From an uncultured Ruminiclostridium sp. (GTDB taxonomy: Bacteria; Bacillota; Clostridia; Oscillospirales; Ruminococcaceae): 64,000 bases of DNA. Shown here in pieces: positions 39,874 through 52,508 of this stretch (position 1 is its first letter; each line of letters starts with the position of its first letter). A program made the position numbers and the translations under genes. The stretch is taken from positions 62,001 to 126,000 of the forward strand of contig CAKSFR010000009.1 of the NCBI GenBank assembly GCA_934454635.1. Reading direction: 5' to 3'. Under the pieces are notes generated by a model. The model saw only the letters and a program-made list of their open reading frames with translations. It made no database searches and was not told the DNA's origin.

Positions 39874-40686
39874 TCAGCAAATATCTCCTATTTTCTTGCA
39901 GTGCAGGCTGTAAATCCAAGCATTGCGATCTTCCGCCCACGAAAAACGCCGCATATATTCACCGCTGTATTTTCGCAGAGCTTCGATATCGCCGCCGATT
40001 ATGCTGTACAAATCACATTCGACCATTTCGCCATCAACGTACCGCTTGCGGCCGTCGGAACAGATAATATCACCTATTCCAAGCTGCTTCAGCATATCGA
40101 GAAGCCGCTTTGAAGTGTTGCGGTACAGCGCGCGCGTATTGTCGTCGGCAGGACGATCCGGCCAGAGGTTTGCTATTGCGTCCCCGACCGTAAGCCCGGA
40201 GTCCGCACGGTCAACCAAAAGTGCAAAAAGCTCCTCAACCTTAGGTCTGCTGAAAGAAATTATCCTGCCGTTTGCGCGGACGACAAAATCGGGTATCGTC
40301 TGTATCTGCACAAGGCTAGCCGCAACAGGCTTTATGCGCGCCGCCTTGTCCAGTTCGTTTCGTATATCGTCGGCGGTGTACGGTTTAAGGACATATCCGA
40401 CCGCGTTCACTCCGAATGCGTCCAAAGCGTACCTGTCATACGCCGTAACAAATACAATGCGCACGTTCGGGTCGATGCGCGTAAGCTGCCGCGCAAGCTC
40501 AAGTCCGTGCATTTCAGGCATTTCCATGTCAAGAAAAGCTACGTCAACGGGATTTTTTTCCGCCCAGAGGCAAGCCTCCTGCGCACTTGAAAAAAGCCGC
40601 AGATCCTCAACGTCGGGAAAATCCCTGACCGTCATACGAAAATTGACGTGCGCAGGCTGCTCGTCGTCCACATAAATCACACGCAT
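39874..40686 (-). CDS. Response regulator with SARP-like DNA-binding domain
   Basis: 270 residues. The receiver domain has acidic residues at 7-8, phosphoacceptor Asp 53 (FLDMEMPEM) and Lys near 102 (VGYVLKPY). The C-terminal half is not LytTR. VRANGRIISFSRPKVEELFALL, a helix with LWPDRPADDNTR and then CDLYSIIGGDIEALRKYSGEY matches an OmpR-like winged helix plus a shortened bacterial transcriptional activation (BTAD) tail, as in SARP-type regulators. Predicted activator of the precursor array, whose promoter carries SARP-style direct repeats. Encoded 2 bases after the kinase gene. Confidence 0.8.
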   Translation of the reverse strand: MRVIYVDDEQPAHVNFRMTVRDFPDVEDLRLFSSAQEACLWAEKNPVDVAFLDMEMPEMHGLELARQLTRIDPNVRIVFVTAYDRYALDAFGVNAVGYVLKPYTADDIRNELDKAARIKPVAASLVQIQTIPDFVVRANGRIISFSRPKVEELFALLVDRADSGLTVGDAIANLWPDRPADDNTRALYRNTSKRLLDMLKQLGIGDIICSDGRKRYVDGEMVECDLYSIIGGDIEALRKYSGEYMRRFSWAEDRNAWIYSLHCKKIGDIC

Positions 40687-40688
40687 AG

Positions 40689-42467
40689 TTACACCTCCCT
40701 CGGAACCGTAACGGTAACAGTCGTGCCTTTTCCGCGTTCCGACGCTGTTGAGATCGTTCCGCCGACCATCGTTTTAAGACGAAATTCAACGTTTGCCAAC
40801 CCTACCGAGCCTTCCTTTTTCGGCGCGGTCATATCAAACCCCACGCCGTCATCGGTTATCGTGATAATGTTGTTTTCTTCATTGCTGAAAGTCCTCACGC
40901 GGATAATTCCGCTTTCCTTTTTTGGAAGTATCCCGTGCTTGACTGCATTTTCAACAATAGGCTGAAGAATCAGCGTTGGAACGTTAAAATCGTCGGCTTC
41001 GGCTTCGGCGATAAATTCGATTTTCGAGCCGTACCGCATCTTTTCAAGTTCTATATAATCTTCAACATGACGCAGTTCCTTTGAAAACGGCACGAGCGAA
41101 TCGTTTCCGAGGATATCAACGTTGCTGCGAAGATAGCGTGCGAAACGCACAACCGTTTCGTCCGCAAGCTTCGGGTCGTATTTGCACATTCCGCTTATCG
41201 CGTTAAGCACATTAAAGATAAAGTGGCTGCGTATCTGACCTGTCGCCAGAACAATTCTGCTGCTTTTCAGCTCTTCTTCAAGCCTGTGCGTCTGCTCAGC
41301 CTTTTCACGGTCAAGAACAATTTTACGCAGCTCCACAACAAGAAATGCCGCAAAAGTCAGCACAAACACGGGCTTTACGACCATTCCCGAAGTGAAAAGC
41401 CCCAAAACGGCGTTTGCAAGCGCAATTACCCACGACATAAGCAGCGGAAGATATAAAAGCTCAAACTTTTTTGTCCTGTCGGTCGAATAATCGACAAAAA
41501 TACAGACGATAAGGGCGATCGAAGCGCACGCCTGTACGGGAATCCATACATACTGCGCGTTGAATATCCCTATCGCGCCGAGCGTAGTGACAATAAACAG
41601 AACGGCTGCCGCCGCTGCCTGCGCATACGCAATATACGCGCCGATTTTTTTCACCTTTCCCCCAAGCGCGTCGGCAACGCAGAACGAAAAAAGCATTCCC
41701 GCCGTCATGACCGTCATAAAGCGGCCTACAGTTCCGAACGCAAGCGCACTGAAATTTATCGAGAAATTTATAGTGTCGAATATCAGGTATGCGCCGGCAA
41801 ATACAGCAAACGCCCCCCAATGAAACAGCCTTTTTGCGTCGCCGTTTTTTCGGAAGCCGAATCCCAGTCCGATAAGCACAAGCGCAATGGCGATAACCGA
41901 AAATCCCGCAAGCCGCGCGGGCAGACTGAGCCGAAGCATATACAGTTCAAATTCCGCGCCCTCACAGACGTAAATATTGTCCAGAAAGCTGCGGAACGCG
42001 CAGCCGTTTCCAAAGCCGTGGAAGTTGTACAGCGTTATTTCAACGGATTCGTCGGGAGAAATTTCACACGACTCCCACCTGCACCACGTCTTTCCGCAAA
42101 GCTCGTCGAATTTGTTCGCGTTAGGCACGTCCGAGCTGCCGCTCCATACCGATTTCCCGCCGACTTTTATTTCCGCGCTTATATGATCCAGAAAAAAGCG
42201 AAAAACATCGCCGTCCGCCGCTCCGCCGCTGTCACCGACAAGCAGCCTGCCGCGCAGGACAAGGCTTCTCCCTGTAAAGACCGAGCTGCCCGAAAGCGGT
42301 CTGAATTTCCCGCCGTCAAGGCTGTATTCTCCCTCAAAAGCGGCTTTAAGCGGCGCGGGAGCCGCCGCCTGAGTGCTCCTCAGCGACGCAGCCACAAGCA
42401 GAATAACCGCAAGCAGCAGCACCATGCCCTGAAATATATACTCGCCGACTTCCTTTTTTAAATGCAT
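40689..42467 (-). CDS. Sensor histidine kinase, LytS/YehU type, with extracellular domain
   Basis: 592 residues. An N-terminal signal anchor is followed by an outside domain (about 35-185) with five cysteines. Seven or so hydrophobic helices follow (about 190-400), resembling 7TMR-DISM sensors. The His_kinase domain has RSHFIFNVLNAIS with the phospho-His near 419, then an HATPase domain (ENAVKHG, DDGVGFD, GLANVEFRL). It probably phosphorylates the adjacent response regulator. It lies 2 bases after the second ABC transporter gene, so sensing and export are co-expressed. It may sense the exported peptide or wall stress (inference). Confidence 0.85.
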   Translation of the reverse strand: MHLKKEVGEYIFQGMVLLLAVILLVAASLRSTQAAAPAPLKAAFEGEYSLDGGKFRPLSGSSVFTGRSLVLRGRLLVGDSGGAADGDVFRFFLDHISAEIKVGGKSVWSGSSDVPNANKFDELCGKTWCRWESCEISPDESVEITLYNFHGFGNGCAFRSFLDNIYVCEGAEFELYMLRLSLPARLAGFSVIAIALVLIGLGFGFRKNGDAKRLFHWGAFAVFAGAYLIFDTINFSINFSALAFGTVGRFMTVMTAGMLFSFCVADALGGKVKKIGAYIAYAQAAAAAVLFIVTTLGAIGIFNAQYVWIPVQACASIALIVCIFVDYSTDRTKKFELLYLPLLMSWVIALANAVLGLFTSGMVVKPVFVLTFAAFLVVELRKIVLDREKAEQTHRLEEELKSSRIVLATGQIRSHFIFNVLNAISGMCKYDPKLADETVVRFARYLRSNVDILGNDSLVPFSKELRHVEDYIELEKMRYGSKIEFIAEAEADDFNVPTLILQPIVENAVKHGILPKKESGIIRVRTFSNEENNIITITDDGVGFDMTAPKKEGSVGLANVEFRLKTMVGGTISTASERGKGTTVTVTVPREV

Positions 42468-42469
42468 TT

Positions 42470-44650
42470 TCAGACCTCTGCCCTCTGCCGCTCGACAAGC
42501 TCCGCAAAAAATCCGCCGTGCGCTATAAGCTCCTCATAAGTCCCGTCTTCGGCGATCCTGCCTTTTTCGATAACTATTATTCGGTCGCACTCCTTTATAG
42601 TTGAAAGGCGGTGCGCCACCACGATTCTTGTGCATTTTAGCTTCGCAAGCGAATCGGAAACCTGCTTTTGCGTAATGTTGTCGAGAGCGCTTGTCGCCTC
42701 GTCGAAAATCAGTATCTTCGGCTTTGGAGCAATGGCGCGCGCTATCATAAGGCGCTGGCGCTGTCCGCCGGAAATTCCGCCCGAGCCTTCTGAAATTATC
42801 GTGTTCATGCCCATGGGCATAGCGCGTATGTCGTCTGCAATGCCCGCAATTTCCGCAGCTTCCCACGCCTCTTTTTCAGTGAGCCACGGCGCAGAAATGA
42901 TGATATTTGAAAGAATATCTCCCTGAAACAGCTTTCCGTTCTGCGTCACAACGCCGAGCCTCTTTCTGAGCGAGCGCAGATCTATGCTCGAAATATCCTT
43001 TCCGTCATAGTAGACCGCGCCCCTCTGCGGCGTTTCAAAGCCGAGAAGCAGACGTATCAGCGTGGATTTTCCGCAGCCCGTTTTTCCGACTATCGCGACG
43101 TACTGCCCGGGGCGTATTTTTAGCGTAAGGTCGTCAAGAACCGGCGGCATACTTTCGTTATATCTGAACGAGATGTTGTTTAGTTCAATTCCGCCCGAAA
43201 CCCGCGTAAGGACCTGCTTGTTCTCGGTTATTTCGGGTTCGGCTTCCATTATCGGCTTCGCCATATCGAGAACAGGACGTATCTGAGCTATGCTCGCGGC
43301 AATTCCCGCAAGCGCCGTAAACGCTCCCGAAACCATGCCGTAAGCCGACTGGAACGCATAGTAATCCGCAACTGAAACTCCGCTTGTTACCGCAAGATAA
43401 TACATCGCTATCATTCCGACAGAAGAAATGAGCATCGTAAAAATCGAGTTCAGCTTCAGCAGCGCGGGCGGATCGTATTCAAACCGCGCATTCTTTGCAT
43501 AAAGCTCGCCCCATTTCGCAAAAGCCCGCTTTTCCGCGCCCGAAAGCTTGATTTTCTGAACGCCCGAAATCATAGCGTAGCTTTCGCCCTCCTCCTTTGC
43601 GGCGAGCTCCATTTGCTGCTTTGAGATCTTCATCTGCACAAATGTCGTGACAAGCGAAAGAGCAATAGTCGCAAGAATAATTATCAGCGCGGGAACCACA
43701 AGCGCAGGCGCATATTTGAATATCTGCGCAATGTAGATAAGCGAAAAAAGCGACGTAAGCCCGACCGACAACACCGTAGACATAATCATCTGACAAAGCA
43801 TTCCTATGTACTGCGAGCGCGCAGAAAGCTCGCCGGCGCTGTACTTGCCGAAAAACGACGCAGGAAGCGAAAGCACGCGCATCACCGTTGCGGACTGAAC
43901 TGACAGCGAGATTTTCGTGCTTATTCTAGAGAAAATCAGCGATTTTACCGAATTGAACAGCAGCGAGCTTATTGATACACATATGCTGAAAACCGCAATT
44001 GCAATCAGCAGCCGCACGCTTTCCGACTCGATAACCGTCGAGAACAGCAGCTGGCTTATTTTCGGCGAAAACATTCCGATAAGCGTTACGACAACGGTTA
44101 TCGCCGCCGTGAGAATAAAATCGGAGACCGAAAGTTGCGCCAGAATATACTTCGCAAGCGATACGACAGTGATTTTTTTCAGCGGGAACGGCTTATAGAA
44201 AGCGAACGCTTCTTCGGCGAAATCATGCTGATTTTTGCTGTTGACTTTCGTTTTCCGCCCGTTTTTGTCAAAGAAATAATACCCCGTTATTTTCGCGGGT
44301 AAAAGCGCGACAACCGAGCCGTCGCTGCGGCGCGAAGCAAGCATTGCGCCTATAGCTTCCTTGTACCAGCCGTCTGTAAGACTGACCTGCCGCCGCATTA
44401 TCCCGTGCGGACGGGTCATATACTCAAGCTGGTCGTTAAGATCGGTTATTTTTTCGGGAACTTCCCCGGGCTTTGCGCCGTAATAACGCAAGATCTGATT
44501 TATCGCGTCAAGCGAGGCTAAACGGTCGTCGTTTGCCGAGGCTGCGGCGCGCTTTCCCGTAACCGCGCGGGAGATTTGCTCAAAAGCGTCGGAAAACGCT
44601 TCATCATCGCGCTTCTGCCGCTCAAGTATCTGTTCATTGAACCAACTCAC
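42470..44650 (-). CDS. NHLM-type ABC transporter, permease-ATPase without peptidase
   Basis: 726 residues. About 150 N-terminal residues have no peptidase motif, followed by a six-helix membrane domain. The ATPase domain has Walker A GKTGCGKST near 528, the GGISGGQRQRLMIARA signature and Walker B ILIFDEATSALD. This matches the second of the paired transporters (NHLM_micro_ABC2) in nitrile-hydratase/Nif11-leader peptide export systems. It probably forms a heterodimer with its neighbour to pump the mature peptide. The stop is 2 bases before the kinase gene. Confidence 0.85.
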   Translation of the reverse strand: MSWFNEQILERQKRDDEAFSDAFEQISRAVTGKRAAASANDDRLASLDAINQILRYYGAKPGEVPEKITDLNDQLEYMTRPHGIMRRQVSLTDGWYKEAIGAMLASRRSDGSVVALLPAKITGYYFFDKNGRKTKVNSKNQHDFAEEAFAFYKPFPLKKITVVSLAKYILAQLSVSDFILTAAITVVVTLIGMFSPKISQLLFSTVIESESVRLLIAIAVFSICVSISSLLFNSVKSLIFSRISTKISLSVQSATVMRVLSLPASFFGKYSAGELSARSQYIGMLCQMIMSTVLSVGLTSLFSLIYIAQIFKYAPALVVPALIIILATIALSLVTTFVQMKISKQQMELAAKEEGESYAMISGVQKIKLSGAEKRAFAKWGELYAKNARFEYDPPALLKLNSIFTMLISSVGMIAMYYLAVTSGVSVADYYAFQSAYGMVSGAFTALAGIAASIAQIRPVLDMAKPIMEAEPEITENKQVLTRVSGGIELNNISFRYNESMPPVLDDLTLKIRPGQYVAIVGKTGCGKSTLIRLLLGFETPQRGAVYYDGKDISSIDLRSLRKRLGVVTQNGKLFQGDILSNIIISAPWLTEKEAWEAAEIAGIADDIRAMPMGMNTIISEGSGGISGGQRQRLMIARAIAPKPKILIFDEATSALDNITQKQVSDSLAKLKCTRIVVAHRLSTIKECDRIIVIEKGRIAEDGTYEELIAHGGFFAELVERQRAEV

Positions 44651-44662
44651 GTTTTCTCCCCC

Positions 44663-46843
44663 TTAATCGCTCGATACAAGCTTTTTATAAAGCCCGTCAT
44701 TTTTATAAAGTTCCTCATGCGTGCCGCGTTCGACCACTTTTCCTTTGTCCATTACGATTATCTCGTCGCAGTCGCGTATAGTCGAAAGCCTGTGCGCCAC
44801 GACAATGCAGGTTATTCCGCGATCCTTTATCGCTTTTACGACCTCATACTCCGTTTTCGCGTCAAGCGCCGAGGTCGCCTCGTCCATTATAACGATCGTG
44901 GGATCCTGCGCAAGAACGCGCGCAATTTCAAGGCGCTGCCGCTGTCCGCCCGAAAGGTCTTTTCCCCCCTCGGTAAGCTTATAGCCGTAACCGCCGTCGC
45001 GCTGCATAATATCGGTATGTATCTGCGCGTCGCGCGCCGCAAGTATCATTTCAAAATCTTCAATTGAATTATCCCACATTTTTATGTTGTTGGCGATAGT
45101 GTCCTCAAAAAGAATTATATCCTGGTCAACAACCGCGAGAGAGCCTGTAAAAATGCTCCTGTTTATTTTATTTATCGGCTTTCCGTCGAAGAGTATCTCC
45201 CCGCTCCACGGCTGATAAAGTCCCGAAATAAGCTTTGCAAGCGTGGATTTTCCGCAGCCCGACGAGCCGACAAACGCAACTCTGCTGCCCGGCTCAAGCG
45301 TCATGCTGAAATTCTCGATAAGCGGCGCCTCAAGCTTTGAATAACCGAACGTTACGTTCTTCATTTCAAGCTTTCCCGAAAGCTTGCCCTCTTCCTCGCC
45401 TATTTCCGCGTTTTCGTTTTCATACGCTGCGTCGGCAGGATACTCCATAACGTCCTCTATTCGCTCCATTTCGGAACGCATTTCCTGTAAAGTCTGACCC
45501 GCGCCTATAAGGCTGAGCGCAGGACCGGTAAACGAGCTGAGAAAGCCCTGAAAAGCCATTATCATACCGACGGTAAAGCTGCCGTTCATCGCAAAATATA
45601 CGCCGAACATAAGCACGGCAGTGCTGCAAAGCGTTGAAACAAGCGACGGTATCATTCCGAGATACTGGTTAAGCTTCAGGAACTTTACCTCCTGCGCGTT
45701 CACGCTTGCCTGATATCCTGCCCACTTCTCAAAAAAACCGTTCTCCGCGCCGCTTGCCTTGATCGTTTCTATCATTTCAATGCCTGCAACGGTCGCTCCG
45801 CTGAGAAGTCCGCGGTCGCGCATCTGCACACGCGTGATGTTCATTCGCTTTTTTGAAATGATCCGCGAAACGAACAGATTCACGATTATCGAAACAATTC
45901 CGATAAGCGTGAGAAACCAACTGTATTGCAGCATAACAACGAGGTAGAATATCATCATTCCCGTATCAAGCACCAGCGGCGCAAGCGTGTTCACGAGATT
46001 TCCCGCGACAGAGGCGTTCGACGCCTGCCGCCCCTGAATATCTCCCGCCATTCTCTGCGAGAAAAACTCCATGGGAAGCCGCAGGACGTGCCAGAAATAC
46101 GTCGCGTTTCCGACTGCGGAAAGCTTTCCGTTTATTTTAAGCGAATACACCGCCTGTATCCATTCGACAATAAGCTGAACTCCCAAAAATACCGCGAACG
46201 CGATAAGAAAAGGATACAGCCAGTCGGGGTTCTGCCCGGTAAGCAGCCTGTCAAAAAAAATTCGGCTGAACGCGGGCGAAATTACACCCATAAGCGCCGA
46301 AATTATACCCGTAAGCGCCACGAAAGCGACCTGTATTCCCGCGCCTTTCAGACGCTTTTTCGCAAACGTCAGAATACTTTTCGGCTTTCCGCCGGGTTCA
46401 AATGTTTCGTTCGGCTCAAACATCATGCAGATGCCTGTAAAAGAGCGATCGAACGTTTCCTCCGAAACAGTGTACGTTCCGCGCGCAGGGTCGTTGAGCA
46501 CCGCCTTTTTGCCCTTAAATCCGTCCAGAACAACGAAGTGATTGAAATTCCAGTGAATTATACAGGGGAATTTTCCGTTTTTGCGGAGCTCCTCGGGTTC
46601 ATAACGATAGCCCTTTGCGTTAAGCCCGTATGAGCGCGCCGCAATAAGCACGTTTTTCGCTTTTGAGCCGTCGCGCGATACGCCGCAATCGGAACGGAGC
46701 TGTTCAAGCGGGATCCATTTGCCGTAATACGCAAGAATCATCGTCAGACACGCCGCGCCGCATTCGAGCGCTTCCATCTGCATAACTACGGGAACCTTTG
46801 CCGCGCCGCGCGTAAGCGGCTTTTTTATCTTTCCTTTACCCAT
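44663..46843 (-). CDS. NHLM-type peptidase-containing ABC transporter (C39)
   Basis: 726 residues. The N-terminal C39 peptidase has catalytic Cys 28 (ECGAACL), His 102 (NHFVVLDGF) and Asp 118 (NDPARG). It cuts leaders after double-Gly-type sites, here presumably VAAG. A six-helix membrane domain and an ATPase with Walker A GSSGCGKST, the LSGGQRQRLEIAR signature and IVIMDEATSALD follow. This is the NHLM_micro_ABC1 form that pairs with the transporter gene 12 bases away. It should remove the 71-residue leader and export the core. Confidence 0.9.
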   Translation of the reverse strand: MGKGKIKKPLTRGAAKVPVVMQMEALECGAACLTMILAYYGKWIPLEQLRSDCGVSRDGSKAKNVLIAARSYGLNAKGYRYEPEELRKNGKFPCIIHWNFNHFVVLDGFKGKKAVLNDPARGTYTVSEETFDRSFTGICMMFEPNETFEPGGKPKSILTFAKKRLKGAGIQVAFVALTGIISALMGVISPAFSRIFFDRLLTGQNPDWLYPFLIAFAVFLGVQLIVEWIQAVYSLKINGKLSAVGNATYFWHVLRLPMEFFSQRMAGDIQGRQASNASVAGNLVNTLAPLVLDTGMMIFYLVVMLQYSWFLTLIGIVSIIVNLFVSRIISKKRMNITRVQMRDRGLLSGATVAGIEMIETIKASGAENGFFEKWAGYQASVNAQEVKFLKLNQYLGMIPSLVSTLCSTAVLMFGVYFAMNGSFTVGMIMAFQGFLSSFTGPALSLIGAGQTLQEMRSEMERIEDVMEYPADAAYENENAEIGEEEGKLSGKLEMKNVTFGYSKLEAPLIENFSMTLEPGSRVAFVGSSGCGKSTLAKLISGLYQPWSGEILFDGKPINKINRSIFTGSLAVVDQDIILFEDTIANNIKMWDNSIEDFEMILAARDAQIHTDIMQRDGGYGYKLTEGGKDLSGGQRQRLEIARVLAQDPTIVIMDEATSALDAKTEYEVVKAIKDRGITCIVVAHRLSTIRDCDEIIVMDKGKVVERGTHEELYKNDGLYKKLVSSD

Positions 46844-46851
46844 CGCGCACC

Positions 46852-47328
46852 TCAGTTAAACACAAAAGAAAGCGGAGAAATTGTTTCTGTAACTATTTCA
46901 GCGTAATATGCGCCCTCGGAAATCGTTCCGCCAATTCCGACGCCGCAGACCCATTCACCGCGCTGAAAATCCGCGATATGAAGCGCGTAGTCGGTAAAAT
47001 CTTCACCGTCCGCCTGAACAGCCTGTGATGAAACCGCCGAAACCGTATATTCCGCGCCGTTTATCCTGACCGTATTCCCTTCGCCGACCGACGCGGCGTC
47101 CGATTCTTTTATATAACAGACAACGCTTTCGCCGTCAGATACCGCAACAGCCTTTACCGTGGTTTCAAGCCGCCCGAACACGCCCCAGACGCACACCCCC
47201 GCAAGCAATATGATAATGCCGAGCAAAACCGCCCATACCCCGGGGTTGGATACTCTTATGTATTGGTTAAGCTGTTCGGGCGAAGCCGCCCTCTGAACAT
47301 TTTTTTCGCGGTACAAAGATGATTTCAT
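46852..47328 (-). CDS. Short HlyD-like NHLM secretion protein
   Basis: 158 residues. A cytoplasmic N-terminus, one transmembrane helix (about 31-52), then a short beta domain (ETTVKAVAVSDGESVVCYIK, ADFQRGEWVCGVGI). It resembles NHLM secretion accessory proteins of the HlyD type but lacks the long coiled coil seen in typical 250-420-residue members, so it may only form a cap or a lipoyl-like adaptor. It starts the export operon, 8 bases before the peptidase transporter gene. Confidence 0.75.
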   Translation of the reverse strand: MKSSLYREKNVQRAASPEQLNQYIRVSNPGVWAVLLGIIILLAGVCVWGVFGRLETTVKAVAVSDGESVVCYIKESDAASVGEGNTVRINGAEYTVSAVSSQAVQADGEDFTDYALHIADFQRGEWVCGVGIGGTISEGAYYAEIVTETISPLSFVFN

Positions 47329-47469: not shown

Positions 47470-47694
47470 TCATTTTCTTCTGATTTTATTCTCGTCGTAC
47501 CAGCTCCGCTTTCTTACCGCGCCGCAGTTACGACAAACCGCATAATCTCCGTCGGGCGAAAGCTGCCATGTTGTATCCATATCGCAGCCGTCGCACGGAC
47601 AGAGAAATTCGGAAAAGCTTTCTCCCGCGCCGCCGGTTACGGAATCGAGAACATTATCGTTAAGTTCAAATTCTGAGTGTTTGTTTTCGTCCAT
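47470..47694 (-). CDS. Small double-glycine leader peptide with Cys-rich core
   Basis: 74 residues. The N-terminal 23 residues end in LDSVTGG, a double-glycine-type leader like Nif11 and bacteriocin leaders. The 50-residue core has two paired-Cys clusters (LCPCDGCD and CRNCG) suggesting zinc or thioether chemistry. It shares no core sequence with the seven larger precursors and has a much shorter leader. It lies at the end of the precursor operon, 27 bases after the last long precursor. It could be a second product type or an immunity/helper peptide. Confidence 0.7.
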   Translation of the reverse strand: MDENKHSEFELNDNVLDSVTGGAGESFSEFLCPCDGCDMDTTWQLSPDGDYAVCRNCGAVRKRSWYDENKIRRK

Positions 47695-47721
47695 TTTTCC
47701 CTCTTTTCGGCACGGGTGCGG

Positions 47722-48156
47722 TCAGTTGTTGTGGCGTGCAGGGTGAGTACATAAGTATAACATACCAAAAAGCTTGTAGTATTTGCAGTCTTTGCAAAAA
47801 TGTCCGGTTATAATGCCCGGCGTATGTGTGTCTTTGTGCTTTTCGTTGCGGCTACATTCGCACAGACAGCATCTCCAGCGTTTGCAGGAATTGAGCGCGG
47901 TCACTACAGGCTTTTCGTCGTGATATATCGTCCCGCACTTCTTTCCCGCAGCCACGTTGTCAAGCTCGTCGTCGCTCAGTTCGCCGCTTTCCGTGCCTGC
48001 GCCTTTCATAAACTCGTCAAGCTCTCCGAGCGTGGCTTCACAGCCGTGAGCCTTGAGAAAGTCCTCGATTTTTTCGTTTTCGACAGCTTCTATGTACTCT
48101 TTTTTCAGAGTATCATCAGCGTTTACTTCAATATAAAGTTCCTTTAAAGTTTTCAT
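47722..48156 (-). CDS. Nif11-leader RiPP precursor 7 (last and divergent)
   Basis: 144 residues. The leader is exactly 71 residues ending LDNVAAG and contains the helical Nif11 pattern (YIEAVENEKIEDFLKAHGCEA). The core is 73 residues with 9 cysteines. It is the most divergent core of the seven: it keeps KCGTIYHD and CKDCKYYK but has MLYLCTHPARHNN where others have GLWxCYxxERxNN, so the Trp and Gly-Gly are lost. It may be a decaying or re-specialised copy. It is the last long precursor before the 74-residue peptide gene. Confidence 0.85.
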   Translation of the reverse strand: MKTLKELYIEVNADDTLKKEYIEAVENEKIEDFLKAHGCEATLGELDEFMKGAGTESGELSDDELDNVAAGKKCGTIYHDEKPVVTALNSCKRWRCCLCECSRNEKHKDTHTPGIITGHFCKDCKYYKLFGMLYLCTHPARHNN

Positions 48157-48166
48157 TGTGCGCTCC

Positions 48167-48619
48167 CTAATTATTTACACGCTCTTTACAGTAACAAAGC
48201 CACAGACCGCCCTTGTATCTGCAAAATTCACAGCCGCTGCACATTGCGCCCTGACGGTGACAAGGCGGAGCGAACTTTGAATTTCCTGCGCAGTCCTCCT
48301 GAACCTCAGGCTTGCTTCTTCCGCACGTCTTACAGCGGTAAAAGTCGCAGCTGTTCGCTACGGTAACAACGGGGTGACCGTCCTTGTAGACCGTTCCGCA
48401 CTTCTTTCCCGCAGCTACATTGTCAAGCTCGTCGTCGCTCAGCTCGCCGCTTTCCGCGCCCGCGCCTTTCATAAACTCGTCAAGCTCTCCCAGCGTCGCT
48501 TCACAGCCGTGAGCCTTGAGAAATTCCTCGATCCTGCCGTTTTCGGCAGCTTCAAAATACTCCGCTTTCAGGTTTTCGCCAGACATTACCTCGGTATAAA
48601 TTTCACTAAGAGTTTTCAT
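48167..48619 (-). CDS. Nif11-leader RiPP precursor 6
   Basis: 150 residues: 71-residue Nif11-type leader ending VAAG, then a 79-residue core with 11 cysteines. The core runs KCGTVYKDGHPVV, CKTCGRSK, CxGCEFCRYKGGLWLCYCKERVNN-like. It shares most of the leader with its neighbours (nearly identical from GELSDDELDNVAAG), and the gap to the next gene is 10 bases. Each gene in the array has its own AGGAG-type ribosome site. Confidence 0.88.
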   Translation of the reverse strand: MKTLSEIYTEVMSGENLKAEYFEAAENGRIEEFLKAHGCEATLGELDEFMKGAGAESGELSDDELDNVAAGKKCGTVYKDGHPVVTVANSCDFYRCKTCGRSKPEVQEDCAGNSKFAPPCHRQGAMCSGCEFCRYKGGLWLCYCKERVNN

Positions 48620-48629
48620 TGCGCGCTCC

Positions 48630-49085
48630 TCAATTATTTATGCGCTCTTTGCAGTAGCAGATCCACAGACCGCCCGTATATTTGCAGTGTTTGCAGCGGT
48701 TGCATATTGCCCCGTTGCGGTGACACTCATAAGGACATAATATCGGACCTTTTATGCAGTCCTGACGAACTTCATCTCTGGTTCTATCGCAGGTCTTACA
48801 GCGGAAATGATCGCAGCAGTTCGCGACCGTAACAACGGGGTGACCGTCCTTGTAGACCGTTCCGCACTTCTTTCCCGCAGCCACGTTGTCAAGCTCGTCG
48901 TCACTAAGTTCGCCGCTTTTCCCGTCCGCATTCTTCATGAACTCGTCAAATTCGGAAATGGTCGCTTCACAGCCGTTAGCTTTGAGAAATTCCCCGATTT
49001 TGCCGTTTTCGACAGCTTCAATGTACTCGTTTTTTAACGCTTCATCAGCGTTTACTTCGATATAAAGTTCCTTTAAAGTTTTCAT
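48630..49085 (-). CDS. Nif11-leader RiPP precursor 5 (most Cys-rich)
   Basis: 151 residues, leader 71, core 80 with 13 cysteines, the highest count of the set. It has a CCDHFRCKTC cluster and an extra CPYEC pair in the middle, then CNRCKHCKYTGGLWICYC (with Thr for Lys in the usual KYKGG). The core ends ERINN. The repeated CxxC pairs could bind zinc or iron-sulfur before or instead of radical SAM crosslinking. Confidence 0.88.
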   Translation of the reverse strand: MKTLKELYIEVNADEALKNEYIEAVENGKIGEFLKANGCEATISEFDEFMKNADGKSGELSDDELDNVAAGKKCGTVYKDGHPVVTVANCCDHFRCKTCDRTRDEVRQDCIKGPILCPYECHRNGAICNRCKHCKYTGGLWICYCKERINN

Positions 49086-49095
49086 GGCGTACTCC

Positions 49096-49554
49096 TTAAT
49101 TATTTATTCGTTCTTCGCAATAACAGAGCCACAGACCGCCCTTATATTTGCAATGCTTGCAGCGACCGCACCTTGGTCCGCTGCGGTGACAATTAGGGGA
49201 TAATACCGGACCTTTGCTGGAATCCCGACAAACTTCCGCTCTGGTTTTGCCGCAAGTCTTACAGCGAAAATGGTCGCATTCATAACCGTTCGTAACGGCA
49301 ACAACGGGGTGACCGTCTTTATAGACCGTTCCGCACTTCTTTCCCGCGGCTACGTTGTCAAGCTCGTCGTCGCTGAGTTCGCCGCTTTCCCCGCCTGTAT
49401 TCTTCATAAATTCGTCAAATTCACCGAGCGTCGCTTCGCAGCCGTGAGCCTTGAGAAATTCCCCGATCTTGCCGTTTTCAGCCGCTTCAACATACTCGGT
49501 TTTCAGACTTTCGTCAGCCATTACCTCGGCGTAAAATTCATTTAAAGTTTTCAT
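49096..49554 (-). CDS. Nif11-leader RiPP precursor 4
   Basis: 152 residues, leader 71, core 81 with 11 cysteines, the longest core. A two-residue insertion (NGYEC) precedes the CDHFRCKTC cluster, and an extra Cys appears in EVCRD. It ends CKHCKYKGGLWLCYCEERINN-like. Slightly wider spacing (50 bases) separates it from the upstream gene; that gap contains ATTATACC-like AT-rich bases but no clear terminator. Confidence 0.88.
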   Translation of the reverse strand: MKTLNEFYAEVMADESLKTEYVEAAENGKIGEFLKAHGCEATLGEFDEFMKNTGGESGELSDDELDNVAAGKKCGTVYKDGHPVVAVTNGYECDHFRCKTCGKTRAEVCRDSSKGPVLSPNCHRSGPRCGRCKHCKYKGGLWLCYCEERINN

Positions 49555-49604
49555 AATAACCTCTCAAATTTTTGGTATAATTCGCTTAATCATACGGCGC
49601 TGAA

Positions 49605-50057
49605 TCAGTTGTTTACTCGTTCGGGATGATAGCAGAGCCATAAACCGCCCTTGTACTTGCAGAATTTACAGCCTATGCACATTTCTCCGTGGTCGCTACA
49701 GCCATCGGCGAATCTTATGCCTCTGAAGCTGCCGGTCTGAACTTCGCCTCTGCCCTTTCCGCAGGTCTTGCACTGATAACGGTCACAGACGTTGAAGGTA
49801 GCGACAACGGGACGTCCATCCTTATATACCGTTCCGCACTTCTTTCCCGCAGCTACGTTGTCAAGCTCGTCGTCGCTAATTTCGCCGCTTTGCGTGCCTG
49901 CGCCATTCATAAACTCGTCAAACTCTCCGAGCGTCGCTTCGCAATCGTGAGCCTTGAGAAATTCCTCGATCTTACCGTTTTCAGCGGCTTCAATGTACTC
50001 GTTCTTCAGTGTTTCGTCAGCCATTACTTCAGTGTAAAGTTCGTTTAAGTTCTTCAT
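49605..50057 (-). CDS. Nif11-leader RiPP precursor 3
   Basis: 150 residues, leader 71 (HDCEA instead of HGCEA and GEISDD instead of GELSDD), core 79 with 9 cysteines. Its middle segment differs from the other copies (TGSFRGIRFADGC) while both ends are conserved: KCGTVYKDGRPVV at the start, CIGCKFCKYKGGLWLCY at the end. This pattern of constant ends and variable middle suggests diversification of a functional loop. Confidence 0.88.
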   Translation of the reverse strand: MKNLNELYTEVMADETLKNEYIEAAENGKIEEFLKAHDCEATLGEFDEFMNGAGTQSGEISDDELDNVAAGKKCGTVYKDGRPVVATFNVCDRYQCKTCGKGRGEVQTGSFRGIRFADGCSDHGEMCIGCKFCKYKGGLWLCYHPERVNN

Positions 50058-50076
50058 AATATACTCCTTATTTTCA

Positions 50077-50532
50077 TTAGTTGTTTATACGTTCGTCGTT
50101 ATAGCAGATCCAAAGTCCGCCCTTGTATTTGCAGTAAATACAGTTTCCGCACGCAGCCGAAGCCCAGCATACGCTGCATCTGCCGCCCTCAAATGCATCG
50201 AGCATTTCATATGTAAGGCTCGAATCATCACTTTTGCAGTGCTTGCATTTAAATCGATGGCATTTATTTATGATTGCAACAACGGGTCGATTGTCCTTAT
50301 AGACCGTTCCGCACTTTCTTCCCGCAGCGACGTTATCAAGCTCGTCGTCGTCAAGCTCGCCGCTTTTTTCGCTGCTGTTCATCATAAATTCATCAAATTC
50401 GGAAAGGGTCGCTTCACAGCCGTGAGCCTTGAGAAATTCCTCGATTTTGCCGTTTTCTGCCGCCTCAATGTACTCGCTTCTAAGAGCCTCGTCAGCGTCT
50501 GCTTCCTTATAAAGTTGAATTAAAGATTTCAT
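50077..50532 (-). CDS. Nif11-leader RiPP precursor 2
   Basis: 151 residues, leader 71 ending DELDNVAAG, core 80 with 10 cysteines. The core starts RKCGTVYKDNRPVV, has CHRFKCKHC, a distinct acidic middle (SSLTYEMLDAFEGGRC) and CGNCIYCKYKGGLWICYNDERINN-like end. The leader start MKSLIQLYKEADADEALR departs from the MKxLxELYxEV pattern of the others. Gap to the upstream precursor is 9 bases. Confidence 0.88.
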   Translation of the reverse strand: MKSLIQLYKEADADEALRSEYIEAAENGKIEEFLKAHGCEATLSEFDEFMMNSSEKSGELDDDELDNVAAGRKCGTVYKDNRPVVAIINKCHRFKCKHCKSDDSSLTYEMLDAFEGGRCSVCWASAACGNCIYCKYKGGLWICYNDERINN

Positions 50533-50541
50533 GCTCTCTCC

Positions 50542-50991
50542 TTAGTTGTTTATGCGAATATCATTGTAGCAGATCCACAAACCGCCCTTATACTTGCAGT
50601 ATTTACATGAAGAACAGACGCAGCCGTGACGGTGACATTTCGGAAAATATTCCTCGGATCGGCTCGACTTGAACACCTCGTCCCTGCTTTTTCCGCAGCC
50701 TCCGCAGATAAAATGCTCGCATCTGTTCATAAGGGTTACAACCGGTCTGCTGTCCTTATAAACAGTTCCGCACTTCTTTCCGGCAGCTACATTGTCAAGC
50801 TCGTCGTCGTCAAGCTCGCCGCTTTTTTCGTGCATTTCCGCAAAAAACTTCTCAACGTCCTCGGAATATGCTTCGCAGCCGTGTACTTTCAGAAATTCAT
50901 CGATTCTGTCGTTCTCGGCGGCGGCAACATACTCTCTCTGAAGATTTTCGTCCGCCATTACTTCGGCATAAAGCTCCTTTATATTTTTCAT
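50542..50991 (-). CDS. Nif11-leader RiPP precursor 1 (promoter-proximal)
   Basis: 149 residues, leader 71, core 78 with 10 cysteines. The leader's second half (AYSEDVEKFFAEMHEKSGEL) is the most different of the set, but the end DDDELDNVAAG is kept. The core has CEHFICGGCGKSRDEV and HGCVCSSCKYCKYKGGLW. It is first in the operon, directly behind a promoter with SARP-type repeats, so it should be made in highest amount. ATG 50991 has CGGAGGAATG upstream. Confidence 0.88.
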   Translation of the reverse strand: MKNIKELYAEVMADENLQREYVAAAENDRIDEFLKVHGCEAYSEDVEKFFAEMHEKSGELDDDELDNVAAGKKCGTVYKDSRPVVTLMNRCEHFICGGCGKSRDEVFKSSRSEEYFPKCHRHGCVCSSCKYCKYKGGLWICYNDIRINN

Positions 50992-51023
50992 GACATTCCT
51001 CCGTTTCGTTTTTCGTTGGCTTT

Positions 51024-51055
51024 ATTATAGCTGAAGCACCGTATCTGAACCGTAA
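51024..51055 (-). promoter_or_regulatory. Precursor-operon promoter with SARP-type direct repeats
   Basis: Minus strand: TTACGGT (51049-51055), 4 bases, ATACGGT (51038-51044), 8 bases, -10 TATAAT (51024-51029). The repeats share 6 of 7 bases, have 11-bp pitch and lie 8 bp from the -10; there is no good -35 box. This is the classic layout for SARP activators, which replace -35 recognition. Confidence 0.65.
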
Positions 51056-51070
51056 CCGCACAAAAAGAAA

Positions 51071-51106
51071 AACTGCACAAAAAATAAATTACTTTTTTGT
51101 ACAGTT
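51071..51106 (-). terminator. Terminator of the radical SAM gene
   Basis: AACTGCACAAAAAA (51071-51084) pairs with TTTTTTGTACAGTT (51093-51106), and on the minus strand TTTTTCTTTTT follows. It separates maturase transcription from the precursor promoter. Confidence 0.8.
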
Positions 51107-51122
51107 TTGACTTATTTTACCA

Positions 51123-52508
51123 TTATTTTATTTTCGTGAGGTTTTCCCAATCGGGTAAAGCGGAAACGAACCTGTCATAATACCCGTTTTCCCAGAAAAA
51201 GCATTTCGACGGGTCAACACCGAGCTTATCGCCTGTTATCGCGAGCGCGACTGCGCGGCAGCCTCCGCAGCAATATTCAAAATATCCGCATTCTCTGCAC
51301 TTTTCGTTCTTTTCGCGAAGCGTTCCGACCGTCGTACAGACCTCGTCCATGTATCTTCCGCCCCGCAAAAGTTCTTTAAGGCTGCCCGTCTTGAGATTGC
51401 CGAGAATGTCGCCGTGCTGTTCGTAATAGCCCGACATCTGGTGACACGGAAAGACGTTTCCGTCCGCCGCGACTGCGATCATTCCGCGGTTTCCCTTACA
51501 TACGGGCGCGCTCGCGCGATATTCGCCGGGACAGCACTCAACAGCCGAAAGAACATAGCTTTTGTCGCGCGGAGAGAACGAACCGACCTGCCAGACCGTT
51601 ATCGTCATATCGTGCTTTTCCGAATAATACTGTTTCAGAAAATCAAGCATTCCGTCATAGTATTCCTTTATGGTGAGGGTTGCGTTTCCCGCGTTTTTGA
51701 CCCAGCGCGGGGCTTCGGTCGTGCGGATTATACGCATTTCGTCCACGCCCATTGAGTCCATAAGCCTTGCCGTAGGCAGCATTGATTCAATATTCAGCCG
51801 ATGAACGTTCGTCTGGACCTTTACGGGGAAACCGCTGTCCGTGCAGAGCTTTACAGCGCGCAGTGCGTCCTGCTCCGCGCCTTTGCGTCCGCGAAGCCAG
51901 TCGTGGTGTCCAAGTCCGTCGAAAGATATTTTCACAAGCGGAACGCAGCCCATGCTTTTCAGCCGTCCGAGCGATTCGGCGTTAAGGTAAAATCCGTTCG
52001 TATTCAGCTCGTAGACGTACATATCGCGGGCGTATATCCCCTCGATTATATCAAAAAAATTCTTGTGCAGCATAGGCTCTCCGCCCGTTATCGTGAAGCC
52101 GTTTATTCCGCATTCGCGCGCCATATCGAGCAGGCTGTTCGCCTCATCGAGGCTCCATTCGCTCTGAAGCGGAGCGTTATCCGCCGCGTTGAAGCAGTGC
52201 AGGCAGTTATAGTTGCACTTTCCCGTTATCATCCAGTTCATAGCGGGAAAATAACGATTGTCGCAGACCATATTCTGCCACGCGGTCAGCTTTTTTTCGC
52301 CCTTTTCACACGGAGCAGCCATTCCCGAATCAATAAATTTTTTCAGCAGCGGCGTCTCCGCGAGATCGTGAAGCCCGTCGCACTGCGTAAGCAACTCGTA
52401 TTCGTCCTTTGTCAGCCTCTGCGCGTCGCGATAGCCTTTAATATAGTATGCATACGGCGTTTTGAGCCACGAACGCAGTCCGATATTTTCATTTAAAATA
52501 CAGTACAT
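51123..52508 (-). CDS. Radical SAM/SPASM peptide maturase
   Basis: 461 residues, the likely modifying enzyme for the precursor array. The N-terminal 85 residues (YKGYRDAQRLTKDEYELL-like) resemble a PqqD-type leader-recognition wing. The radical SAM barrel carries CNYNCLHC (Cys 98, 102, 105) and the GGEP motif in ITGGEPMLH. The C-terminal SPASM domain has many cysteines (ECCPGEY, VCKGNRG, FPCHQMSG, then KCRECGYFEYCCGGC) for two auxiliary iron-sulfur clusters. Nif11-linked SPASM enzymes typically form thioether or carbon-carbon links; the product here is unknown. ATG 52508 follows AAAGGAG. Confidence 0.88.
   Translation of the reverse strand: MYCILNENIGLRSWLKTPYAYYIKGYRDAQRLTKDEYELLTQCDGLHDLAETPLLKKFIDSGMAAPCEKGEKKLTAWQNMVCDNRYFPAMNWMITGKCNYNCLHCFNAADNAPLQSEWSLDEANSLLDMARECGINGFTITGGEPMLHKNFFDIIEGIYARDMYVYELNTNGFYLNAESLGRLKSMGCVPLVKISFDGLGHHDWLRGRKGAEQDALRAVKLCTDSGFPVKVQTNVHRLNIESMLPTARLMDSMGVDEMRIIRTTEAPRWVKNAGNATLTIKEYYDGMLDFLKQYYSEKHDMTITVWQVGSFSPRDKSYVLSAVECCPGEYRASAPVCKGNRGMIAVAADGNVFPCHQMSGYYEQHGDILGNLKTGSLKELLRGGRYMDEVCTTVGTLREKNEKCRECGYFEYCCGGCRAVALAITGDKLGVDPSKCFFWENGYYDRFVSALPDWENLTKIK

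What the first reader, a model, noticed from the sequence alone, without database searches (positions are those of the whole stretch)
47470..52508. Seven-member Nif11-leader precursor array with a radical SAM/SPASM maturase
Seven tandem genes encode leaders of exactly 71 residues ending VAAG and cores of 73-81 residues with 9-13 cysteines. The core ends are nearly constant (KCGTVYKD...PVV at the start; in six copies KYxGGLWxCY...RxNN at the end), while the middle varies. A radical SAM/SPASM gene lies directly upstream, and NHLM-type export genes downstream. Constant ends with a variable loop suggest a combinatorial product family. The cores are unusually long and I do not recognise them from any described RiPP class.
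Basis: partly seen in the sequence, partly recalled or inferred. Interest (0 to 1): 0.92.

Follow-up and report, generated by a model that had tools for sequence, protein, structure and literature searches.

The report
Seven exported cysteine-rich mini-protein precursors
A gut-type bacterium carries seven neighbouring genes for small cysteine-rich proteins that are probably trimmed, altered by one shared radical enzyme and secreted; the kind of system is known, but this family of products and its enzyme look undescribed.

Summary
In detail: seven tandem minus-strand genes (47722-50991), each with a 71-residue Nif11-type leader ending VAAG and a 73-81-residue core with 9-13 cysteines, lie behind a radical SAM/SPASM gene and ahead of NHLM export genes. 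The general kind has been in print since 2010-2011. The cores match no Pfam or NCBIfam model above cut-off. The core family recurs in gut and rumen Clostridia: 15 of 15 genomes found through the precursors also hold this radical SAM enzyme, against 1.8-4.1% in six genome samples around some of them.

(1) The middles are not a freely varying loop: core types persist in other strains, mostly better conserved than their own leaders. (2) The same enzyme clade sits beside unrelated cores (two-CxxC, zinc-ribbon-like, acidic single-cysteine, LanM lanthipeptides). Most share a cysteine within four residues of the cleavage site: 41 of 51 cores in enzyme-found loci, 2 of 31 in control loci, with exceptions both ways.

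Best reading: one leader-guided enzyme modifies the junction-cysteine region of small, folded, probably metal-binding proteins that are then cleaved and exported. Chemistry, metal and biological role are inferred.

The parts
51123..52508 (-). radical SAM/SPASM enzyme, 461 aa, with an N-terminal domain that is probably the leader-binding (RRE-like) domain
50542..50991 (-). precursor 1: leader 71 aa, core 78 aa, 10 Cys
50077..50532 (-). precursor 2: leader 71, core 80 aa, 10 Cys; the same core occurs elsewhere behind a precursor-1-like leader (P0011, P0012)
49605..50057 (-). precursor 3: leader 71, core 79 aa, 9 Cys
49096..49554 (-). precursor 4: leader 71, core 81 aa, 11 Cys
48630..49085 (-). 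precursor 5: leader 71, core 80 aa, 13 Cys; the one folded
48167..48619 (-). precursor 6: leader 71, core 79 aa, 11 Cys
47722..48156 (-). precursor 7: leader 71, core 73 aa, 9 Cys; divergent core type that recurs in relatives (0.74-0.97 core identity)
47470..47694 (-). 74-aa ORF ending a short region in VTGG, then a CPCDGC...CRNCG motif; possible eighth exported product of another leader type
   Evidence: only sub-cut-off zinc-ribbon-like Pfam hits; no relative above 40 bits in the 30 loci
46852..47328 (-). short HlyD-like adaptor, 158 aa
   Evidence: TIGR03794 33.5 bits over residues 13-76 only, below cut-off; adaptors of about the same length in relatives
44663..46843 (-). NHLM ABC1 peptidase/permease/ATPase: probable leader cleavage and export
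   Evidence: TIGR03796 951.9 bits, cut-off 853.3
42470..44650 (-). NHLM ABC2 permease/ATPase
   Evidence: TIGR03797 716.9 bits, cut-off 709.4
40689..42467 (-). sensor histidine kinase, 2 bases from ABC2; possible regulator of this operon only
   Evidence: weak kinase hits; no kinase relative above 60 bits in any other held locus
39874..40686 (-). response regulator, BtsR/LytR-like receiver
   Evidence: one relative above 60 bits, in L019

Best explanation
A multi-product maturation and secretion operon. Shown by sequence: seven precursors with a common Nif11-type leader, one radical SAM/SPASM enzyme, a C39-type NHLM exporter. Inferred: the N-terminal domain of the enzyme binds the leader; the enzyme makes one main modification at or from the cysteine that lies just behind the cleavage site (Cys3 of each window core); the rest of the core folds on its own around the conserved cysteines (C20-x4-C25-x2-C28 and C-x2-C-x2-C-x8-C in six copies), most likely round one or two metal ions as in zinc ribbons; ABC1 cuts behind VAAG and the ABC pair exports the product. 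Seven stable products are made for use outside the cell, most likely in competition with neighbouring bacteria.
For: Linkage: 15 of 15 genomes found through the precursors that hold the core family hold this enzyme (13 of 17 such loci carry it on the fetched piece; for the other four, L013, L016, L022 and L029, it is elsewhere in the genome), against 7 of 295, 9 of 394, 7 of 392, 6 of 146, 4 of 148 and 3 of 151 genomes in samples that each include the centre genome and partly overlap. Junction cysteine: Cys in the first four core residues in 41 of 51 cores of loci found by the enzyme (23 of 32 when core-family members are set aside) against 2 of 31 cores of loci found by the leader family without the enzyme (Fisher 1.6e-11 by cores, 0.0056 by loci, 13 of 17 against 2 of 11). 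Of 10 single-Cys cores in enzyme-found loci, 6 have it in the first four and 3 in the last four residues. One clade, many cores: the core type needs at least four changes on the enzyme tree; L070 (acidic single-Cys cores) is sister to L009 (core family) at 97/88. L004 and L005 have a LanM between precursors and enzyme, and their cores begin with or near Cys. Fold: at least two CxxC in 85% of 85 family cores against 24% (at most 34%) after shuffling; core modelled at about pLDDT 90 in most blocks; the profile's C-terminal half hits bL36 zinc ribbons at E 0.06-0.7, weak but repeated and in register.
Against: Cys near the junction also occurs in 6 of 25 cores of genomes without the enzyme (5 in L021, 1 in L026), and in the two dropped control loci with cores, L110 and L147 (2 of 2). 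L069, L071, L073 and L083 have the enzyme but none of their 7 cores has it; three further enzyme loci (L074, L079, L081) show no precursor. No acceptor residue at a fixed distance from the cysteine is common to the cores (Asp at +4 in 28% of family and 11% of other cores, weighted by locus). No zinc family reaches a cut-off and no solved structure matches the model. The enzyme's structural neighbours do different chemistry.
Confidence: 0.5

Rival explanations
1. Multi-crosslinked sactipeptide- or ranthipeptide-like product: the enzyme joins many of the 9-13 cysteines of each core to carbon atoms of other residues, and no metal is bound. This is.
For: Closest solved sequence is SkfB, a RiPP maturase; CteB and SkfB are among the top structural matches; the cores are rich in Cys; Asp at +4 of the junction Cys in 28% of family cores recalls the Cys-to-Asp spacing of freyrasin (the spacing itself is recalled).
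Against: The same enzyme clade sits beside cores with one Cys only and beside LanM lanthipeptide cores; the conserved cysteines form CxxC pairs typical of metal sites; no constant acceptor positions were found.
Confidence: 0.2
2. The cores are unmodified small metal-binding or disulfide proteins exported by NHLM; the radical SAM enzyme acts on something else.
For: The core looks able to fold on its own, and zinc-ribbon-like cores also occur in Nif11 arrays whose genome lacks this enzyme (L021).
Against: 15 of 15 linkage and close neighbourhood, 7 to 1181 bases where both lie on one piece of the A1-found set, one overlapping by 108 bases; core type follows the enzyme tree more than by chance (6 changes against 11.8 shuffled, 0 of 500).
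Confidence: 0.12
3. Same biochemistry but another role: secreted metal-binding peptides for metal uptake, or signals sensed by the two-component system at the end of the operon.
For: CxxC-rich exported products; kinase and response regulator directly downstream.
Against: The kinase pair is not found at the related loci held (one weak regulator in L019); seven stable and different products fit competition better than one uptake task; no receptor or importer gene was looked for.
Confidence: 0.18

Closest known systems
Nif11-derived RiPP precursors (N11P, TIGR03798) with NHLM export, Haft et al. 2010, PMC2887384 (abstract and sections 7, 9 and 10 seen)
   Same: Leader family, paralogue expansion, cleavage motif before the core, ABC1/ABC2 export genes nearby, one enzyme for many precursors
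   Different: Described there with cyclodehydratase or LanM enzymes and with a low-complexity Cys/Gly/Ser-rich region behind the leader; here 73-81-residue structured cores, a radical SAM enzyme and a VAAG end
[quoted passage not shown]
   Same: Same arrangement: Nif11 leader plus a radical SAM enzyme with the C-terminal CxxC-x5-CxxxC motif
   Different: This enzyme's NCBIfam matches are all far below cut-off among the 25 of 71 shown (best 116.9 against 500 bits; nif11_3 78.3 against 725)
Prochlorosins (listing and abstract start of PMC10783134 seen)
   Same: Nif11 leaders, many different cores, one promiscuous enzyme
   Different: Lanthionine synthetase instead of a radical SAM enzyme; short cores (recalled)
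Sactipeptides and ranthipeptides (SkfB, CteB; passages of PMC8326336 seen)
   Same: Radical SAM/SPASM enzyme of the same overall fold, Cys-containing peptides
   Different: Short peptides with several thioethers; here long cores, and single-Cys cores in the same enzyme clade
bL36-type zinc ribbons
   Same: Weak profile match of the C-terminal half, CxxC then Cys-x-N/H-P
   Different: E-values of 0.06 and above; part of the core only

Membership tests
Nif11-leader RiPP precursors (TIGR03798) | leader matches the curated model above its cut-off | tested here: inconclusive
   7 of 7 match, 16.3-29.2 bits against a cut-off of 32.3; 96 of 104 relatives match at E<=0.01; the profile hits Nif11 9zn4 at 1.9e-10
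Nif11-leader RiPP precursors (TIGR03798) | Gly-Gly-type cleavage motif before a different core | tested here: met
   VAAG in seven of seven; VAGG is common in relatives
NHLM export system | ABC1 with peptidase domain and ABC2 above curated cut-offs | tested here: met
NHLM export system | full-length HlyD partner (TIGR03794) | tested here: not met
   158 aa, 33.5 bits against 156.2, residues 13-76 only
radical SAM/SPASM peptide maturases | CxxxCxxC, SPASM domain and auxiliary cluster cysteines | tested here: met
radical SAM/SPASM peptide maturases | N-terminal leader-binding domain (RRE) | tested here: inconclusive
   strands 2-5, 9-13, 20-23, helices 34-41 and 53-61 in the model; alignments to SuiB and SkfB start at residues 1 and 7; no Pfam match for that part
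nif11-class radical SAM maturase 3 (TIGR04103) | score above the curated cut-off | tested here: not met
   78.3 against 725 bits
nif11 radical SAM family TIGR04064 | score above the curated cut-off | tested here: inconclusive
   not among the 25 of 71 families shown
sactipeptides / ranthipeptides | Cys-to-carbon thioethers | not testable with these tools
   needs mass spectrometry
zinc-ribbon proteins | match to a curated zinc-ribbon family | tested here: inconclusive
   only sub-cut-off hits; bL36 E 0.064 at best; no fold match, but the core was not modelled alone

The most novel reading that the evidence does not exclude
This radical SAM/SPASM clade is a junction-cysteine enzyme: guided by the Nif11 leader, it installs one common modification at a cysteine beside the cleavage site (or, in some branches, at the other end), whatever the rest of the core is: a folded zinc-ribbon-like mini-protein, an SH3-like domain, an acidic tail or a lanthipeptide. 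It would be a general end-modification of exported small proteins rather than a crosslinker of peptides.
Probability: 0.35. Interest if true: 0.82.

Novelty: new variant of a known kind. Interest (0 to 1): 0.62.

Why it matters
The enzyme family is large (1640 protein clusters at E<=1e-60) and appears only as 'radical SAM protein' in the few source names shown among the 120 rows listed. If one enzyme modifies the same end cysteine of folded mini-proteins, it would widen what peptide-maturing radical enzymes do, give a tool for labelling protein ends, and open a secreted product family of gut and rumen Clostridia to direct test.

Tried and rejected

Rows dropped before counts: of 14 control loci fetched, 11 were counted; L110 (its genome holds the enzyme), L147 (another radical SAM gene) and L145 (no leader hit) were left out; adding L110 and L147 gives 4 of 33 and Fisher 4e-10. 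L109 was counted although its genome holds the enzyme on another contig, and L140 although it has a 159-bit radical SAM relative. Cores under 12 aa were left out. One core of L066 is cut too early and counts against the reading. L014 and L015 (309 and 284 bits, cut or split genes) fell under the 380-bit line and were counted as without the enzyme on the piece; that mixed A1-found group has 29 of 59. Alignment A2 holds 104 rows: 7 window, 52 database proteins and 45 of the 78 locus cores listed, chosen by me. A3 holds 68 rows. Core classes on the tree, other than F, were labelled by eye. L020 and L068 are the same contig and both enter the 85 cores.
Full report
Observation. Seven minus-strand ORFs between 47722 and 50991 follow one another at 9 to 50 bases. 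Leaders are 71 aa to VAAG in 7 of 7; cores are 73-81 aa with 9-13 Cys. In six copies the cysteine frame is C3, C20, C25, C28, then C-x2-C-x2-C-x8-C (copy 4 is shifted by two residues); copy 7 keeps the first half and departs in the second. The radical SAM/SPASM gene lies 131 bases upstream of the first precursor; a 74-aa ORF, a short HlyD-like gene, NHLM ABC1 and ABC2, a histidine kinase and a response regulator follow on the same strand. It reads as one operon, though no transcript is known.

What the leader is. TIGR03798 matches all seven below its cut-off. With relatives included the family is clear: 96 of 104 rows match at E<=0.01, 45 of 104 match Pfam Nif11 at E<=0.1, and the profile matches the solved Nif11 protein 9zn4 over residues 6-70 at 1.9e-10.

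What the core is. No Pfam or NCBIfam core model is passed. Starting from the window's seven cores, an iterated profile gathers 163 of 319 cores held, 52 of them database proteins. In the non-redundant set of loci plus window, 83 of 85 family cores have Cys in the first four residues and 85% have at least two CxxC, against 24% on average after shuffling (L020 and L068 are one contig counted twice). The typical distant relative reads GC-x3-DGRLVVT...C-x2-W-x-C-x2-CG...C-x2-CKYCSYEKGLWLCNNP. AlphaFold with 104 rows gives the core mostly pLDDT 87-93, with short strands and a helix, and dips to about 72 in the middle and at the end. No solved structure matches the model, but the leader part dominated that search. 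By sequence profile the C-terminal half hits many bL36 zinc ribbons in one register at E 0.06-0.7: suggestive only.

Constant ends, variable middle. Paralogues in the window share 0.56-0.80 of leader and 0.34-0.73 of core residues. Between strains the order is turned round: of eight homologues with a core at least 93% identical to a window core, other than the window's own proteins, seven have a less conserved leader (0.58-0.87), and one (P0009) has leader 1.00 and core 0.97. P0011 and P0012 carry the core of precursor 2 behind a leader like that of precursor 1. dN/dS is below 1 for leaders (21 of 21) and for cores (15 of 15 finite pairs; six are saturated). So each product is kept by selection, and leaders are traded or evened out between copies.

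The enzyme follows the core family. Of 30 loci found with the precursor alignment, 19 carry the radical SAM relative on the fetched piece. Seventeen loci hold core-family members; they come from 15 genomes (L003 and L013 are one genome, L016 and L023 another). Thirteen of the 17 loci have the enzyme on the piece; for the other four (L013, L016, L022, L029) it is elsewhere in the genome. Five A1-found loci without the core family (L008, L010, L021, L024, L026) have no enzyme in the genome. Background in sampled groups, the centre genome included and the groups partly overlapping: 7 of 295, 9 of 394, 7 of 392 (orders), 6 of 146, 4 of 148, 3 of 151 (families). The enzyme family is large: 1640 protein clusters at E<=1e-60.

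But the enzyme also serves other cores. Twenty loci were fetched because they hold the enzyme, so their cores were not chosen. They include plain zinc-ribbon-like cores (L064, L065, L072, L076), acidic single-Cys cores (L070, L078) and others; among the A1-found loci are an SH3-like core (my description) in L019 and LanM clusters: in L004 and L005 a 901-aa LanM lies between precursors and enzyme. On a tree of 35 enzymes the core-family label needs 6 changes, at least 4 forced by well-supported branches, against 11.8 after shuffling (0 of 500 as low): cores follow the enzyme, yet switch several times; L009 (family) and L070 (acidic) are sisters at 97/88.

What these cores share. Cys lies in the first four residues of 41 of 51 cores in 17 of the 20 enzyme-found loci (the other three showed no precursor), and of 2 of 31 cores in 11 control loci found by the leader family (Fisher 1.6e-11 by cores). 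By loci it is 13 of 17 against 2 of 11 (p 0.0056). Without core-family members it is 23 of 32. Cys density is 0.201 at positions 1-4 against 0.074 at 5-24 in enzyme-found loci, and 0.016 against 0.023 in controls. Ten enzyme-linked cores have one Cys: six in the first four residues, three in the last four, one inside. Results against: 6 of 25 cores in genomes without the enzyme have it (L021, L026), the two dropped control loci with cores have it (2 of 2), and L069, L071, L073 and L083 have the enzyme without it. In L014, whose core has its first Cys at position 8, the enzyme appears as two separate ORFs, as if decaying; L008 and L010 have closely similar cores, a LanM and no enzyme.

Known and new. 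Nif11 precursors with NHLM export and one enzyme for many precursors were set out in PMC2887384 (sections 7, 9 and 10 read). A radical SAM protein as sole candidate maturase of NHLP/Nif11 precursors, and a mix-and-match of maturases and precursors, are in PMC3023750 (passages read). The present core family, the enzyme clade and the junction-cysteine rule were in no title or abstract start listed by nine searches. Hence: a new variant of a known kind, with an open and testable enzymatic question.

Noticed in passing
L004:2289-6403, L005:1486-5603: Class II LanM gene directly followed by this radical SAM gene behind Nif11 lanthipeptide-like precursors: a possible doubly modified lanthipeptide.
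   Followed up: partly
L070:7004-7538, L078:8595-8807, L082:6630-6830: Very short enzyme-linked cores with a single Cys near the start, some strongly acidic.
   Followed up: partly
L069:1693-2043, L071:962-1222, L080:8517-8840: Enzyme-linked cores whose only Cys lies in the last four residues instead of the first four.
   Followed up: no
L014:3417-4677: The radical SAM relative appears as two separate ORFs in a LanM locus whose core lacks a junction cysteine.
   Followed up: no
L012:12595-14981, L017:12274-14087: A second, distant radical SAM gene beside Nif11 precursors with Cys-x-Cys and GGGG repeats.
   Followed up: no
L021:7908-14621, L028:8287-12640: Large Nif11 arrays without this enzyme on the piece: amphipathic FFTKDVPEFF cores, zinc-ribbon cores and tiny tails such as MSIWTYH; the L021 genome has no match to the enzyme.
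   Followed up: partly
46852-47328 and NHLM loci L001, L006, L009, L011, L012, L016, L017, L019, L030, L072: The HlyD-like partner of these NHLM exporters is only 157-161 aa at these ten loci and the window, far shorter than the 421-position model, so it is no truncation peculiar to the window; other loci gave 100-180 aa, some at contig ends.
   Followed up: partly
47470-47694: 74-aa ORF with VTGG and a CPCDGC...CRNCG motif between precursors and exporter.
   Followed up: partly
39874-42467: Histidine kinase and response regulator close the operon; not found at related loci except one weak regulator.
   Followed up: partly
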